DNA from: Caenimonas koreensis DSM 17982
Lineage (GTDB): Bacteria > Pseudomonadota > Gammaproteobacteria > Burkholderiales > Burkholderiaceae_C
NCBI RefSeq assembly: GCF_009646335.1
Contig: NZ_WJBU01000007.1
Location: 1-64,000 of the forward strand
Length of the DNA: 64,000 nt
Direction of reading: 5' to 3'
A program made the translations under genes and the position numbers. Under the pieces are notes generated by a model. That model made no database searches. It was not told the origin of the DNA and saw nothing but the letters and a program-made list of their open reading frames with translations. Of the stretch, positions 21,162 through 30,536 are shown piece after piece; position 1 is the stretch's first letter; every line of letters starts with the position of its first letter.

Positions 21162-21211
21162 CATATGGGCGTCACGGCTGCACGACTTTCCAGGCGTGCA
21201 GCCACCTTGTT

Positions 21212-21415
21212 GGCCGGTATCCGGGCTGGCGGGATCGTCTCCATCACCTTCCCAGGCGCGAGTGTTCAGACTCGCACCCAGTGGCTTCGTCGATGGAGCG
21301 GAATTCGTTTGACCGAATTCATCCGCTTACCGTTGCGGGGGCAGCGCAGGTTGGCTTGAGGCCTCAAGAGGCTGTGGGCGCCCTGCTTCCCGTTGAACTG
21401 CGGCATGCGAACCAC
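21212..21415 (-). promoter_or_regulatory. Cobalamin (AdoCbl) riboswitch
   Basis: Read on the minus strand the region carries the conserved core GCTGCCCCCGCAACGGTAA, the B12 box GAAGCCACTGGG, and a closing GCCAGCCCGGATACCGGCC, in the right order within about 200 nt. It lies directly upstream of btuB and ahead of an intrinsic terminator, so cobalamin binding should stop transcription of the whole btuB-btuD operon. Confidence 0.93.
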
Positions 21416-21481
21416 ACCGCGAGCACCAACGTTTTCGATTTTACGCGCGATGCCGCGGCGAAACCCTACAATCGTTCGCGT

Positions 21482-27545: not shown

Positions 27546-29075
27546 ATGGAAGAAATCAACGCACTCTTCCATGGCTTCAGCGTCATCCTGACGCCGATGA
27601 ACATGCTGCTGATGATGGTGGGCATCGTGCTCGGTGTGCTCATTGGCGTGCTGCCGGGGCTCGGCGGCGCGAACGGTGTGGCCATCCTGCTGCCGCTCAC
27701 TTTCACGATGTCGCCCACGTCGGCGATCATCATGTTGTCGTGCATTTATTGGGGCGCGCTGTTTGGCGGCGCGATCACCTCGATCCTGTTCAACATTCCG
27801 GGCGAGCCGTGGTCCGTCGCAACCACATTCGACGGCTACCCGATGGCACAGAACGGCTATGCCGGGCAGGCGCTGACGGCCGCATTCACCTCGTCATTCA
27901 TTGGCGCATTCGTGGCCGTGGTGATGATCACCTTCCTCGCGCCGCTGGTCGCGAAGTTCGCGCTGAAGTTCGGGCCGCCTGAATACTTCGCGGTGTACCT
28001 GCTGACGTTCTGCAGTTTCGTCGGCATGGGCAAAGGATCGCCCTTCAAAATCATTGCGTCGATGACCATTGGCTTTGCACTGGCAGCCGTGGGCATGGAC
28101 ACGGTGACGGGCCAGTTGCGCCTGACGTTCGGCCTGCCCGACCTGATGCGCGGCTTCGACTTCCTGATCGCCGTGATTGGCCTGTTTGGCATTGGTGAAA
28201 TCCTGCTGTCGATGGAAGAAGGCCTCGCGTTCTCAGGCAAGACAGCCAAGATCAACCCGAAGGTGGTGTTCGAAACCTGGAAGACGCTGCCGAAATACTG
28301 GATGACGTCGGTGCGCAGCTCGCTCGTCGGCATCTGGATGGGCATCACGCCCGGCGGTGCAACGCCGGCCTCTTTCATGAGCTACGGCCTGGCCAAGAAG
28401 ATGTCGAAAGACGGCGCGAAGTTCGGCACCGGCCAGATCGAAGGCGTGATCGCCCCCGAGACAGCGGCGCACGCCGCGGGCACGAGCGCCCTGCTGCCGA
28501 TGCTGGCCCTCGGCATTCCGGGCTCGCCCACCGCTGCCGTGCTGCTGGGCGGCCTGCTGATCTGGGGCCTGCAACCCGGCCCGCTGCTGTTCGTCGAGCA
28601 AAAAGACTTTGTGTGGGGCCTGATCGCGTCGATGTACCTGGGCAACCTCGTTGGCCTGATCGTGGTGCTGACCACTGTGCCGCTGTTCGCATCGATCCTG
28701 CGCATTCCGTTCTCGATCATCGCGCCGGTGATCGTGGTGATCTGCGCCATTGGCGCCTACACCGTGCACAACGCGATGCTCGACATCTGGTTCATGATGG
28801 TCTTCGGCGTGATCGGCTACGTATTCAAGAAGCTCGATTACCCGCTGGCACCGCTCGTGCTCGCGCTCGTGCTGGGCGACAAGGCCGAAGACTCGTTCCG
28901 CCAGGCGATGCTGCTGTCGCAAGGCGAAGTCGGCATTCTCTGGTCGAACCCGCTGGTGGGCACGATCTCGACGCTGGCGATGATCCTGCTCTTCTGGCCG
29001 CTGCTGTCGAGGCTGCTCGCGAAGGTCCGCAAGCCAAAGCCGAAGGACCTGCCGCAGGAGCAACCGGTTGATTGA
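27546..29075 (+). CDS. tctA: TTT large membrane subunit TctA
   Basis: A 509-residue protein with about 10-12 membrane helices. The two Gly/Pro-rich repeats are clear: GVLIGVLPGLGGANGVAILLPLTF and the second at about 350 (GIPGSPTAAVLLGGLLIWGLQPGP). ATG 27546 gives the normal family start MEEINALFHGF. With TctB and TctC it forms a cation-driven carboxylate importer. Confidence 0.94.
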   Translation: MEEINALFHGFSVILTPMNMLLMMVGIVLGVLIGVLPGLGGANGVAILLPLTFTMSPTSAIIMLSCIYWGALFGGAITSILFNIPGEPWSVATTFDGYPMAQNGYAGQALTAAFTSSFIGAFVAVVMITFLAPLVAKFALKFGPPEYFAVYLLTFCSFVGMGKGSPFKIIASMTIGFALAAVGMDTVTGQLRLTFGLPDLMRGFDFLIAVIGLFGIGEILLSMEEGLAFSGKTAKINPKVVFETWKTLPKYWMTSVRSSLVGIWMGITPGGATPASFMSYGLAKKMSKDGAKFGTGQIEGVIAPETAAHAAGTSALLPMLALGIPGSPTAAVLLGGLLIWGLQPGPLLFVEQKDFVWGLIASMYLGNLVGLIVVLTTVPLFASILRIPFSIIAPVIVVICAIGAYTVHNAMLDIWFMMVFGVIGYVFKKLDYPLAPLVLALVLGDKAEDSFRQAMLLSQGEVGILWSNPLVGTISTLAMILLFWPLLSRLLAKVRKPKPKDLPQEQPVD

Positions 29076-29091
29076 GCCGCGTGGGCGACGT

Positions 29092-29118
29092 TTAGATTTT
29101 CCCGCGCTGCTTGAGCCG
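29092..29118 (-). pseudogene. Remnant of a second crp-like 3' end
   Basis: On the minus strand this stretch encodes RLKQRGKI followed by a stop, the same last eight residues as the intact regulator gene ending at 29871. The two copies share the 20-base core TTCCCGCGCTGCTTGAGCCG and differ at three bases, all silent (AAA/AAG, ATC/ATT, TAA/TAG). Homology ends abruptly upstream. It is therefore a cut-down copy of a related gene end, or half of a direct repeat flanking the inserted palindromic segment. Confidence 0.7.
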
Positions 29119-29122
29119 ATTG

Positions 29123-29143
29123 AATTGGGGTCAGATTCCAATT
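29123..29143. repeat. Small AATTGG/CCAATT palindrome
   Basis: AATTGG (29123-29128) and CCAATT (29138-29143) flank GGTCAGATT. Similar GGGGTCAGA-containing sequences often occur in intergenic repeats of proteobacteria. It lies immediately beside the crp remnant, at the left edge of the palindromic segment. Confidence 0.5.
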
Positions 29144-29180
29144 TCGACCGGGTTTGGTTGTCGGTCTACTGTTCGGGGTG

Positions 29181-29450
29181 CGTCACGCCAGGCGGTGTGC
29201 GGTGCTGTCCCGCGGTGCGGTGGTCAGCGCTGTCGCGCTGACTTCGCTGTCAGGCGGGCTGCGGCAGCGGTGCGACATAACTCGCTGCGCCTAAAGGCTC
29301 CACTCGAACAGATGTCGCAAGTCAGAAGGTCCCGCGTGGCTCGTTTCGCACGCTGCGCGTGCTGCACATAGCCCCGCTCCGCTGCCGCAACCCGCCTGAC
29401 AGCCACCACCCCTGATTGCGGTACAACACCGCACACCACCTGACGTGACG
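29181..29450. repeat. Long palindromic unit 1
   Basis: The left arm (29181-29270) and right arm (29379-29450) are inverted copies. The outer 33 bases match at about 29 positions, and the inner 25 bases (29246-29270 with 29379-29403) match at 24. The left arm contains an extra perfect hairpin GTCAGCG...CGCTGAC. The 108-base top of the palindrome carries a 59-base block (29267-29325) whose inverted copy is at 29679-29737. ORFs here are by-products of the repeat. Confidence 0.8.
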
Positions 29451-29557
29451 TGGACAGTGCGGTGGACTGTCGACGAGTTGGAAGACCACGAACGCGCCGC
29501 GTGATCAGAGCGGTCATGCAACAACGTGTTGATCGACTACCGCTCTGTCCTGCAAAG

Positions 29558-29831
29558 CCGTGTGCGGGTGGGCTGTGGCGCGCAATCAGGGCGTGGTGCC
29601 TGCGATGGGTGGGCTTGTGGCGCTGCGTTGCTACGAGTGCTTGCGTGAGCAAGCTGATCGAGCAACGCGGGACGTGAACTGACTTGCGGCATCTGTCCGA
29701 GTGGAGCCTTCAGGCGCAGCGAGTTATGCCGCAGCGCCGCGAGCCTGCCCAGCGCAGGTTGCCTGAAGGTCACGCGACAAGCGAGACCGAAAGGACACCA
29801 CGACCGCGCGACATAGCCCACCCGCACACGG
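29558..29831. repeat. Long palindromic unit 2
   Basis: Outer arms of 26 bases (29558-29583 and 29806-29831) are inverted copies with 24 matches, starting CCGTGTGCGGGTGGGCT. Inside lies the 59-base block 29679-29737, 54/59 identical to the reverse complement of the block in unit 1. The two units are thus similar-sized stem-loops in opposite orientation, sharing their apical sequence but not their arms. Confidence 0.7.
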
Positions 29832-29870
29832 ATTTGCTACCCCGAACCCACAGAGCGCCACAAGCACCCC

Positions 29871-30479
29871 CTAAATCTTCCCGCGCTGCTTGAGCCGGCT
29901 CAGCGTCTCTGCCGACAGGTTCAGGTAAGACGCGAGTTCCTTTTTGGGAATGCGGTCGAACAGCTCGGCGTGCTTGCGCATGAAGCGCTTCACGCGGCCC
30001 GGCGCGTCGAGCAGGTGCAGCGTGATCGTGTGCGCCATGATCTCGCTCATCAGGTGCATCACGTTGTATTCGAATGATTGCTTCAGCCCCTGGTGCCGCT
30101 CCAGGAACGCAACCCACTCGCGCATGCCCAGCTTGACCACCCGCGCCTTCGTCACGCAGACGATGCTGTAAGGCGTGGGCGTGCCCAGGCGCCAGGCGGC
30201 ATAGCTTGTTTCCATCTCGCCTTCATCCGTGAAGCGCAGGATCATTTCCTTGGCTTCCTGGTTGGCCACGACGCGCTTCAGGATGCCTTCAAGAATGAAG
30301 TACTGCTCCATCTCGTGCACGCCCTGATTGAGCAGCACGTCGCCCTTGGCGCAATCGACCACGACCAGGTGCGGCTCCAGCTCGAGCATCTGCGCCGCCG
30401 TCATGCCCTTGAGCACGATGTTGTGCGCAAGCTGGAGGCGAATGACGTTTTTTTCAGCGTGGTTGTCGACAGCGATCAT
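29871..30479 (-). CDS. Crp/Fnr family transcription regulator
   Basis: A 202-residue regulator with an N-terminal cyclic-nucleotide-type beta barrel and a C-terminal HTH (IPKKELASYLNLSAETLSRLKQ). The recognition helix has E-x-x-S-R, the FNR-type residues that read TTGAT/ATCAA-like half-sites, and a TTGAC-N4-GTCAA site lies just upstream (30523-30536). It has none of the four Fe-S cysteines of FNR, so it is not an oxygen sensor of that kind. It is divergent from oxc. A TTG start at 30536 would extend it but would overlap the operator; ATG 30479 is preferred, without a clear SD. Confidence 0.85.
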   Translation of the reverse strand: MIAVDNHAEKNVIRLQLAHNIVLKGMTAAQMLELEPHLVVVDCAKGDVLLNQGVHEMEQYFILEGILKRVVANQEAKEMILRFTDEGEMETSYAAWRLGTPTPYSIVCVTKARVVKLGMREWVAFLERHQGLKQSFEYNVMHLMSEIMAHTITLHLLDAPGRVKRFMRKHAELFDRIPKKELASYLNLSAETLSRLKQRGKI

Positions 30480-30522
30480 GGCGAAAAGCAAAGCGCGCTG
30501 CACAGCGCGAAGTTCCCTAAAA

Positions 30523-30536
30523 TTGACCACGGTCAA
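30523..30536. promoter_or_regulatory. FNR-type operator between crp-like gene and oxc
   Basis: A perfect dyad TTGACCACGGTCAA. With a TATGAT -10 box at 30559-30564, the expected start of oxc transcription is about 30571, which puts the operator centre at about -41.5, the classical class II activator position. Confidence 0.7.

What the first reader, a model, noticed from the sequence alone, without database searches (positions are those of the whole stretch)
29181..29831. Paired long palindromes sharing an inverted apical block: candidate new element
In about 650 bases there are two ~270-base stem-loop units. Their arms differ, but both carry a 59-base block (29267-29325, 29679-29737) that is 54/59 identical in inverted orientation. 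No protein-coding gene fits. It may be a non-autonomous mobile element (MITE/REP-like cluster), a structured RNA, or a protein-binding array. It is bounded by the crp-end duplication.
Basis: seen in the sequence. Interest (0 to 1): 0.75.

Follow-up and report, generated by a model that had tools for sequence, protein, structure and literature searches.

The report
Widespread two-hairpin mobile DNA repeat
A 660-base stretch of non-coding DNA is one copy of a widely scattered and apparently undescribed bacterial repeat, made of two long hairpins with the same folded tip, which probably spreads from gene gap to gene gap with the help of an enzyme that has not been identified.

Summary
In detail: two ~270-base hairpins between tctA and a crp-like gene share a 59-base tip, 54/59 identical in inverted orientation (best of 60 shuffles 35). 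It is one copy of a dispersed family. A motif for the tip occurs in 71 of 250 genomes of the taxonomic family and 46 of 135 genera, 0 in the reversed control. Tips less than 600 bp apart face each other: 56 pairs in this order, 0 in the opposite one, 4 in one direction. The tip covaries like a folded structure and tolerates wobble pairs on one strand only (25 to 1), while the long arms show no polarity. Units lie between genes, enriched between convergent ones (45/103 v 45/384), and six ~530-bp copies, 88-97% identical, sit at unrelated sites of one genome. Nine wide pairs enclose lower-GC DNA, mostly with a small ORF. Neither Y1 (RAYT) transposases nor integron integrases are present in all carriers. 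Best reading: a non-autonomous mobile element whose folded tips are recognised by an unknown trans-acting enzyme. Rfam and nine literature searches showed no match.

The parts
29180..29450 (.). Left-end (LE) hairpin, 271 bp; outer arm GCGTCACGCCAGGCGGTG; arms 29181-29213/29418-29450 and 29246-29274/29375-29403
   Evidence: similar LE arms in other Ramlibacter genomes and in G135, another genus
29267..29328 (-). Apical core of the LE hairpin (TGTYTGARCG strand on -)
   Evidence: 54/59 inverted match; covariance model R1, 59.0 bits (this sequence was in the model's alignment)
29451..29551 (.). Inter-hairpin spacer with a small imperfect palindrome (29506-29547)
   Evidence: I11; the place where wide pairs of the family hold other DNA
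29552..29837 (.). Right-end (RE) hairpin, 286 bp; inner arm GCAAAGCCGTGTGCGGGTGGGCTGTGGCGCGC; arms 29552-29594/29795-29837 and 29599-29627/29730-29758
   Evidence: RE arms in other Ramlibacter genomes (G003 has 23 matching stretches, many of them RE-arm pieces)
29676..29737 (+). Apical core of the RE hairpin (TGTYTGARCG strand on +)
   Evidence: also in the model's alignment
29127..29146 (+). Short repeat GGGGTCAGATTCCAATTTCG at the left boundary of the three copies in this genome; 14 places in the genome with up to 3 mismatches, 11 of them not beside the element
29093..29118 (+). 26-bp direct repeat of the 3' end of the crp-like gene (left copy)
   Evidence: D1; not found at the other two copies
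29872..29897 (+). 26-bp direct repeat, right copy (3' end of the crp-like gene)
   Evidence: D1
27546..29075 (+). Left flanking gene, TctA-like (name recalled from the sequence, not searched), convergent
29871..30536 (-). Right flanking gene, Crp/Fnr-like regulator (name recalled, not searched), convergent

Best explanation
The segment is one copy of a dispersed, non-autonomous mobile repeat built from two different long hairpins, a left end (LE) and a right end (RE), whose ~60-nt tips are the same and point in opposite directions. SHOWN: it is a family; the tip has a conserved stem, two conserved boxes (TGTYTGARCGNAG and CGCAGYGAGTT) around a variable mini-hairpin, and CTGACTY beside the stem; the stem and the box pair R-Y covary; wobble tolerance shows that one strand, TGTYTGARCG, is the one whose folding is selected; close pairs keep one order; units sit between genes, often at convergent 3' ends, and near-identical copies occupy unrelated sites of one genome. 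INFERRED: the folded tip is recognised as single-stranded DNA by a recombinase or HUH-type nuclease encoded elsewhere, which moves the LE-RE unit, now and then with a gene between the ends, into intergenic sites, including the middle of other palindromic repeats, so that nested palindromes build up. Once in place it probably blocks read-through from either side, which would make convergent gaps the best-tolerated sites.
For: Copies: three in the window's genome with unrelated flanks, the second full at 87%, the third partial at 88%; 14 tips there by covariance model. Spread: 71/250 family genomes, 46/135 genera, reversed control 0; in one distant genus of the class 8 and 14 motif matches in two genomes, shown to be Thioalkalivibrio by a 100% match of L150 over 2001 bases to G700 of that genus, where units of 717-891 bp recur. 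Recent dispersal: six ~530-bp copies, 88-97% identical, plus two RE-only copies in G135 (one contig, 5.4 Mb) with the same ends and different flanks. Order: 56 v 0 below 600 bp, 5 v 1 at 600-3500 bp; in the named set 31 of 64 clusters with an inner partner, 0 outer. Structure: 136 doubly changed cells v 37 (sd 6.6) shuffled. Polarity: A.C 25 v G.T 1 on the AACTC strand, 13 genomes v 0; arms 125 v 121. Placement: convergent 45/103 v 45/384, p=6e-12; divergent depleted, p=8e-4. Presence/absence: in the tctA-crp interval of 18 relatives no AACTCRCTGCG box with fewer than 2 mismatches; four have 48-114 bp there. Wide pairs hold other DNA between inverted ends, e.g. 97% over 240 bp and 97% over 282 bp. 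Loss of the LE hairpin leaving part of one arm, read by eye in three copies (C42, L450, L451).
Against: No target-site duplication at C3 and C42, none seen by eye in G135. No enzyme identified: no Y1 match in 22 of 71 motif-bearing genomes, G135 among them. No clean pair of filled and empty orthologous sites with an exact junction: at tctA-crp the relatives' intervals are short and diverged or hold another frame, and the locus tried in Thioalkalivibrio is rearranged. In the first sample the wobble polarity was weaker, A.C 13 v G.T 5, and 8 of the 25 come from one genome. All eight G135 copies lie between co-directional genes, none between convergent ones. 37 of 100 fetched loci showed only one tip. 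Wide pairs are few, and one (L371) holds a gene with host-like codons.
Confidence: 0.6

Rival explanations
1. A structured RNA or RNA-level 3'-end element: each transcript that runs through folds the TGTYTGARCG tip, which stops, protects or processes the RNA; copies are kept because they are useful between convergent genes, and spread is secondary.
For: Covariation and strand polarity of the tip fit RNA as well as single-stranded DNA; convergent enrichment and depletion in divergent gaps; the order of the two tips gives one folded tip for reading from either side; no terminator-like site was found in window 28900-30050 (0, shuffles 1.0 +- 1.1), while hairpin-plus-T-run sequences are visible in the short intervals of some relatives (by eye).
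Against: Single-tip copies in co-directional gaps show no orientation with transcription, 14 v 10; wobble-type pairs are few, 26 of 1,072 stem pairs; long arms have no polarity; no Rfam family; copy number varies strongly between genomes of one genus, 0 to 29 motif matches.
Confidence: 0.2
2. A REP/BIME- or TIR-type repeat moved by a RAYT/TIRYT (Y1, HUH) transposase, as described for GTAG repeats and TIR families.
For: REPs are palindromic, often paired head to head, and lie mainly between convergent and unidirectional genes (PMC3733652, passages). The short repeat at the left boundary also precedes the only Y1 gene found in this genome. A GTAG string borders the outer RE arm of this genome's copies (2 of 21 distinct RE arms examined), and CGTC stands near the outer end of 21 of 37 distinct LE-like arms, though that scan used a pattern containing CGTC and allowed 4 mismatches.
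Against: Y1 in 49/71 motif-bearing v 140/179 other genomes (odds ratio 0.62, p=0.14); G135, with eight near-identical or half copies, has no Y1 match; GTAG is missing from 19 of 21 RE arms; the units are more than ten times longer than REPs.
Confidence: 0.12
3. Integron-like recombination sites: the folded tip is handled by an IntI-type tyrosine recombinase and the pairs are cassette ends.
For: Strand-specific folded site with conserved boxes and variable stem, lower-GC DNA with small ORFs between some pairs; IntI over cut-off in 41/71 motif-bearing v 72/179 other genomes (p=0.016) and in five of the six G-handle genomes with wide pairs (G051, G097, G150, G157, G277; not G255, whose enclosed gene looks native).
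Against: Several high-copy genomes have no IntI over cut-off (G126, G224, G063, G132, G237); the attC boxes as I recall them (GTTRRRY/RYYYAAC) are not in the tip; sites are inverted, not direct, and scattered; kinship and genome size were not controlled.
Confidence: 0.05
4. No mobility: palindromes made and kept perfect by template switching during replication.
For: In one Thioalkalivibrio-genus copy the host flank itself is an inverted duplication (L277); LE hairpins are lost by deletions within the arms (by eye).
Against: Template switching cannot carry the same sequence to unrelated sites, would not be expected to preserve the conserved mismatched boxes, and gives no strand polarity.
Confidence: 0.05

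Closest known systems
REP elements, BIMEs and REPINs (GTAG or CGTC repeats; RAYTs)
   Same: Dispersed non-coding palindromes, head-to-head pairs, mostly between convergent or unidirectional genes; recognition of single-stranded REP DNA by a RAYT is reported (PMC3733652, passages)
   Different: Units of about 530-890 bp rather than 20-40 bp; GTAG at only 2 of 21 RE arms; conserved mismatched boxes around a variable mini-hairpin; two different ends; no association with Y1 genes
TIR repeats of TIRYT transposases (PMC3733652, passages)
   Same: Moderately abundant inverted-repeat families apart from REPs
   Different: No Y1 match in 22 of 71 carriers; the TIR sequences of that paper were not compared
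Bacterial MITEs (ERIC, Correia/NEMIS, RUP; recalled)
   Same: Non-autonomous, intergenic, foldback structure
   Different: No general TSD found; each end is itself a ~270-bp hairpin with a strand-polar tip; LE and RE arms differ
Beta-proteobacterial repeat element, BRE (PMC3110155, section 14 and passages)
   Same: Repeated, GC-rich, usually intergenic, in Polaromonas JS666, Delftia, Acidovorax, Rhodoferax; described tandem copies resemble the tips about 99 bp apart in Ramlibacter-genus genome G014
   Different: Described as ~90-bp repeats in tandem; a paired inverted layout is not described in the text read. Its sequence is not in that text, so identity is untested
Integron attC sites (recalled)
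   Same: Folded, strand-specific, structure kept while sequence varies
   Different: Different boxes, inverted pairs, no consistent integrase

Membership tests
REP/GTAG or CGTC repeat | 20-40 bp palindrome | tested here: not met
   Units ~530-890 bp
REP/GTAG or CGTC repeat | GTAG or CGTC tag at one end | tested here: inconclusive
   GTAG at 2 of 21 distinct RE arms; CGTC in 21 of 37 distinct LE-like arms, found with a pattern that itself contains CGTC
REP/GTAG repeat (RAYT-mobilised) | Co-occurrence with a Y1/RAYT gene | tested here: not met
   49/71 carriers v 140/179 non-carriers have a Y1 match
MITE | Non-coding, inverted repeats at the ends, copies at unrelated sites | tested here: met
MITE | Target-site duplication | tested here: not met
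   No exact direct repeat >=11 bp at C3 and C42; only the window copy has a 26-bp one; shorter duplications were not tested
MITE | Parent transposon with the same ends | tested here: inconclusive
   Two enclosed proteins checked: no Pfam hit over its cut-off, no PADLOC hit; the other enclosed ORFs and whole genomes were not searched for a transposase with these ends
Structured RNA family in Rfam | Match at gathering score | tested here: not met
Structured RNA | Transcription and processing | not testable with these tools
   needs RNA-seq
Integron attC | Integron integrase in the same genome | tested here: inconclusive
   41/71 v 72/179, but none over cut-off in several high-copy genomes
BRE | Sequence identity to the Bordetella BRE | not testable with these tools
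   BRE sequence not in the text that could be read
   My gene caller finds no gene between 29075 and 29871; mechanical ORFs there are 142 aa or less

The most novel reading that the evidence does not exclude
A previously undescribed class of bacterial mobile element whose two ends are long hairpins with a common, strand-polar folded tip; it can carry single foreign genes between the ends and is moved by an unknown single-strand-recognising enzyme, distinct from RAYT transposases and integron integrases.
Probability: 0.35. Interest if true: 0.8.

Novelty: new variant of a known kind. Interest (0 to 1): 0.62.

Why it matters
A repeat present in about a third of the sampled genera of a large family of bacteria (46 of 135) has a conserved folded core, a fixed geometry and sometimes other DNA between its ends, yet no matching name or mover turned up in the libraries searched here. 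If the tip is a single-strand recombination site, it points to an undiscovered enzyme and a second route, beside integrons, by which small genes are shuffled. If it acts in RNA instead, it is a widespread two-way 3'-end element. Either way the covariance model and the box motif make it directly searchable and testable.

Tried and rejected
Rejected: protein-coding explanation; known RNA family; the crp-end repeat as the family's target duplication; GGGGTCAGATTCCAATTTCG as the element's own end (11 of its 14 places are not beside the element); plasmid or phage cargo (no blastn match of the segment at E<=1e-5 in either collection; 4 stretches in viral contigs for the box pattern, of which L228 and L230 lack the stem as printed, L229 has it, and L231 was not inspected). 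Led nowhere: an empty-site comparison in Thioalkalivibrio (locus rearranged); a tRNA control for wobble counts (no tRNAs in the 46 loci scanned); the terminator control is too small to use (16 hairpins, G.T 7, A.C 4). An early argument that rare wobble pairs prove a DNA-only palindrome was dropped when one search showed strand polarity.

Literature: nine searches of the held library. The lists are capped: 20 of 50, 9 of 9, 25 of 114, 15 of 98, 15 of 22, 30 of 264 (bare sequence strings), 1 of 1, 3 of 3 and 3 of 3 papers were shown; the rest were not seen. Read: abstract plus two sections of PMC4666352; section 14 and passages of PMC3110155; passages of PMC3733652 and PMC5217627. Search listing only for the others. 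No paper describing this element was seen; subscription journals and bioRxiv are mostly not in the library.

Rows dropped: 16 of 211 instances were set aside (short flanks, N or duplicates) and 17 of the remaining 195 for lack of a stem, 45 of 116 clusters at locus edges and 6 inside genes were not counted in the context test; five of those six have 2-4 of 7 stem pairs and look like chance, one (L166) has 6 of 7. In one search, 33 of 167 modules were dropped (edge, duplicate or weak stem). The L334-L433 set was chosen by hand from the places printed (100 regions), not at random. The background gaps include gaps that hold units; those do not. The gene caller is my own codon-usage script, looked at only on the window. 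The lower GC between wide pairs was compared with the whole locus, not with ordinary intergenic DNA.

Full report
CHECK OF THE OBSERVATION. No gene is predicted between the two convergent neighbours, which end at 29075 and 29871, and no terminator-like or promoter-like site in 28900-30050.

COPIES IN THE SAME GENOME. A second full copy (87%) lies at C3:117090-117751; a third, with most of hairpin 1 missing, at C42. From the ORF lists all three lie between convergent genes. A covariance model of the tip finds 14 tips in the genome (the two window tips were in the model's alignment and match by construction). Homology of the three copies starts at a short repeat, GGGGTCAGATTCCAATTTCG, that has 14 places in the genome, 11 not beside the element, one just upstream of the only Y1-transposase gene found.

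THE FAMILY. Of 41 genomes around the window's, 13 including its own match the segment, all of the same genus. One of them has a contig with the length and match position of a named Ramlibacter contig, so the genus is probably Ramlibacter. The tips gave the pattern AACTCRCTGCG-N4..34-CGYTCARACA: 11 of 31 genomes in the genus, 71 of 250 genomes and 46 of 135 genera in the family, 4 of 370 in the class (own, one family member, two of one other genus). With the covariance model 20 of 299 genomes and 15 of 140 genera of the order match at E<=0.001: matches of 50 bits or more in families f1, f10 and f184; the weaker ones, in five further families and some of f1, may be chance.

ANATOMY. Tip, on the TGTYTGARCG strand: CTGACTY, stem, N, TGTYTGARCGNAG, variable mini-hairpin, CGCAGYGAGTT, stem. 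R and Y covary: in 211 instances G-C 127, A-T 80, A-C 3, G-T 1. RNAalifold finds double changes in 10 of 14 pairs; for a structure that I named, 136 cells have compensating double changes against 37 (sd 6.6) in shuffles, and sliding the partner destroys the signal. The alignment was made by MAFFT, not fitted to the structure.

STRAND POLARITY. In 134 tips with a good stem, mismatches of the wobble kind are A.C 25 and G.T 1 on the AACTC strand, that is G.T on the other strand; 13 genomes lean this way, none the other, one is tied (8 of the 25 are from G186). The earlier set, chosen with the exact pattern, gave 13 v 5. In the long arms the numbers are 125 and 121. So the tip is selected as a fold of one strand, the arms are not. 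This argues for a single-stranded DNA or RNA form of the tip and against a plain double-stranded binding site.

PAIRING. Among 100 loci fetched around printed hits a relaxed detector finds 167 tips, 1 in the reversed sequence. Neighbours closer than 600 bp: 56 in the order of the window, 0 in the opposite order, 4 in one direction; at 600-3500 bp: 5, 1 and 2; 37 loci show one tip. In the named set 31 of 64 intergenic clusters had a partner on the inner side, 0 on the outer side. In the model hits printed I saw by eye no close pair in the opposite order; six pairs in G135 have the same spacing, 283.

PLACEMENT. Of 107 units, 45 convergent, 52 co-directional, 6 divergent, 3 at edges, 1 inside a gene; gaps without a unit: 45, 267 and 72. 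Convergent odds ratio 5.8 (p=6e-12), divergent 0.27 (p=8e-4). The named set gave 26, 36 and 3 against 82, 443 and 95. Against this trend all eight G135 copies are co-directional. Single-tip units in co-directional gaps: 14 v 10 by strand.

MOBILITY. G135 (one 5.4-Mb contig) has six copies of about 530 bp, 88-97% identical to each other, and two with only hairpin 2, at eight sites with unrelated flanks apart from an outer inverted repeat around four of them, as if the unit had gone into another palindrome. In the Thioalkalivibrio genus 26 of 30 genomes match the 2-kb test locus and 14 of 30 have 8 or more matching stretches, which are pieces, not copies; for G689 and G690, one contig each, the only printed match is the flanking gene. 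At tctA-crp four relatives have 48-114 bp and no element, one has 349 bp, and 13 have 837-1015 bp that begin with a shared open frame (read by eye). In three copies hairpin 1 is gone, leaving a piece of one arm (by eye). No general target duplication was found.

WIDE PAIRS. Nine pairs are spaced 733-2,651 bp: five of the 61 pairs in window order in the 100-locus set, four others picked out because they were wide. The DNA between has lower GC than the locus in all nine (0.50-0.66 v 0.58-0.71), though ordinary intergenic DNA was not used as a control. Most hold a small ORF with codon use unlike the host's; L371 holds a regulator-like gene with host-like codons and may be chance. The two hairpins around them are inverted copies, 76-97% identical over 84-351 bp; in 14 narrow pairs the whole unit is 70-79% identical to its own reverse complement over 434-584 bp. 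Two enclosed proteins have no Pfam hit over its cut-off and no PADLOC hit.

WHICH ENZYME. Y1 transposases: 189 of 250 genomes, 49 of 71 carriers, so no positive association. Integron integrase over cut-off: 113 of 250, 41 of 71 carriers v 72 of 179 (p=0.016), but none in several high-copy genomes; genome size and kinship were not controlled. G135 has IntI and no Y1 match; G132 has Y1 and no IntI over cut-off; both have several high-scoring tips. Neither is present in all carriers, so neither alone explains the spread, unless it has been lost after the event.

LITERATURE AND PLACE. Nothing matching was seen in nine searches with capped lists. Nearest are REP/TIR repeats (PMC3733652) and the BRE of Bordetella (PMC3110155), which shares genera but is described as ~90-bp tandem repeats and could not be compared by sequence. 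I file it as a new variant of a known kind (non-autonomous palindromic repeat), not as a member of the REP, attC or Rfam families.

VERDICT. Real, widespread, structurally constrained, probably mobile; mover and function unknown. The step from 'folded single strand' to 'transposition substrate' is inference.

Noticed in passing
21195-21445 (- strand): Cobalamin riboswitch, 72.1 bits (Rfam RF00174), the only Rfam hit in the window at gathering score.
   Followed up: no
29127-29146 and 13 other places in the genome: Short repeat AATTGGGGTCAGATTCCAATTTCG, a mini-palindrome that also precedes the only Y1-transposase gene found in the genome; looks like a repeat of that transposase, and marks the left edge of the three big copies.
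   Followed up: partly
29093-29118 / 29872-29897: Direct repeat of the 3' end of the crp-like gene on both sides of the element; not found at the other two copies, origin unexplained.
   Followed up: partly
tctA-crp interval in relatives (L247-L256, L266, L267, L273): Thirteen relatives have 837-1015 bp here that begin with a shared open frame (MPVI[A]LTQEMGSLAKDVA..., by eye, not ORF-called), absent from the window's genome.
   Followed up: no
L277/L280 (G668:C1, about 142165-143040): Flanking host DNA, including what looks like the 3' end of the neighbouring gene, is an inverted duplication around the element.
   Followed up: no
L037, L064, L080 and other places of genome G014 (same genus): Tips repeated about 99 bp apart in the same direction, unlike the usual inverted pairs; an N stands between some of them, so assembly may matter; resembles the description of BRE tandem repeats.
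   Followed up: no
L137, L142, L181 (Acidovorax, Polaromonas JS666, uncultured Acidovorax): An extra outer hairpin of the kind AAAGTACTTTTCTTTG-CTTCGC-CAAAGAAAAGTACC stands on both sides of the pair.
   Followed up: no
RE outer end, 29837-29840 (- strand GTAG): A GTAG string borders the outer RE arm of this genome's copies but 19 of 21 distinct RE arms examined lack it.
   Followed up: partly
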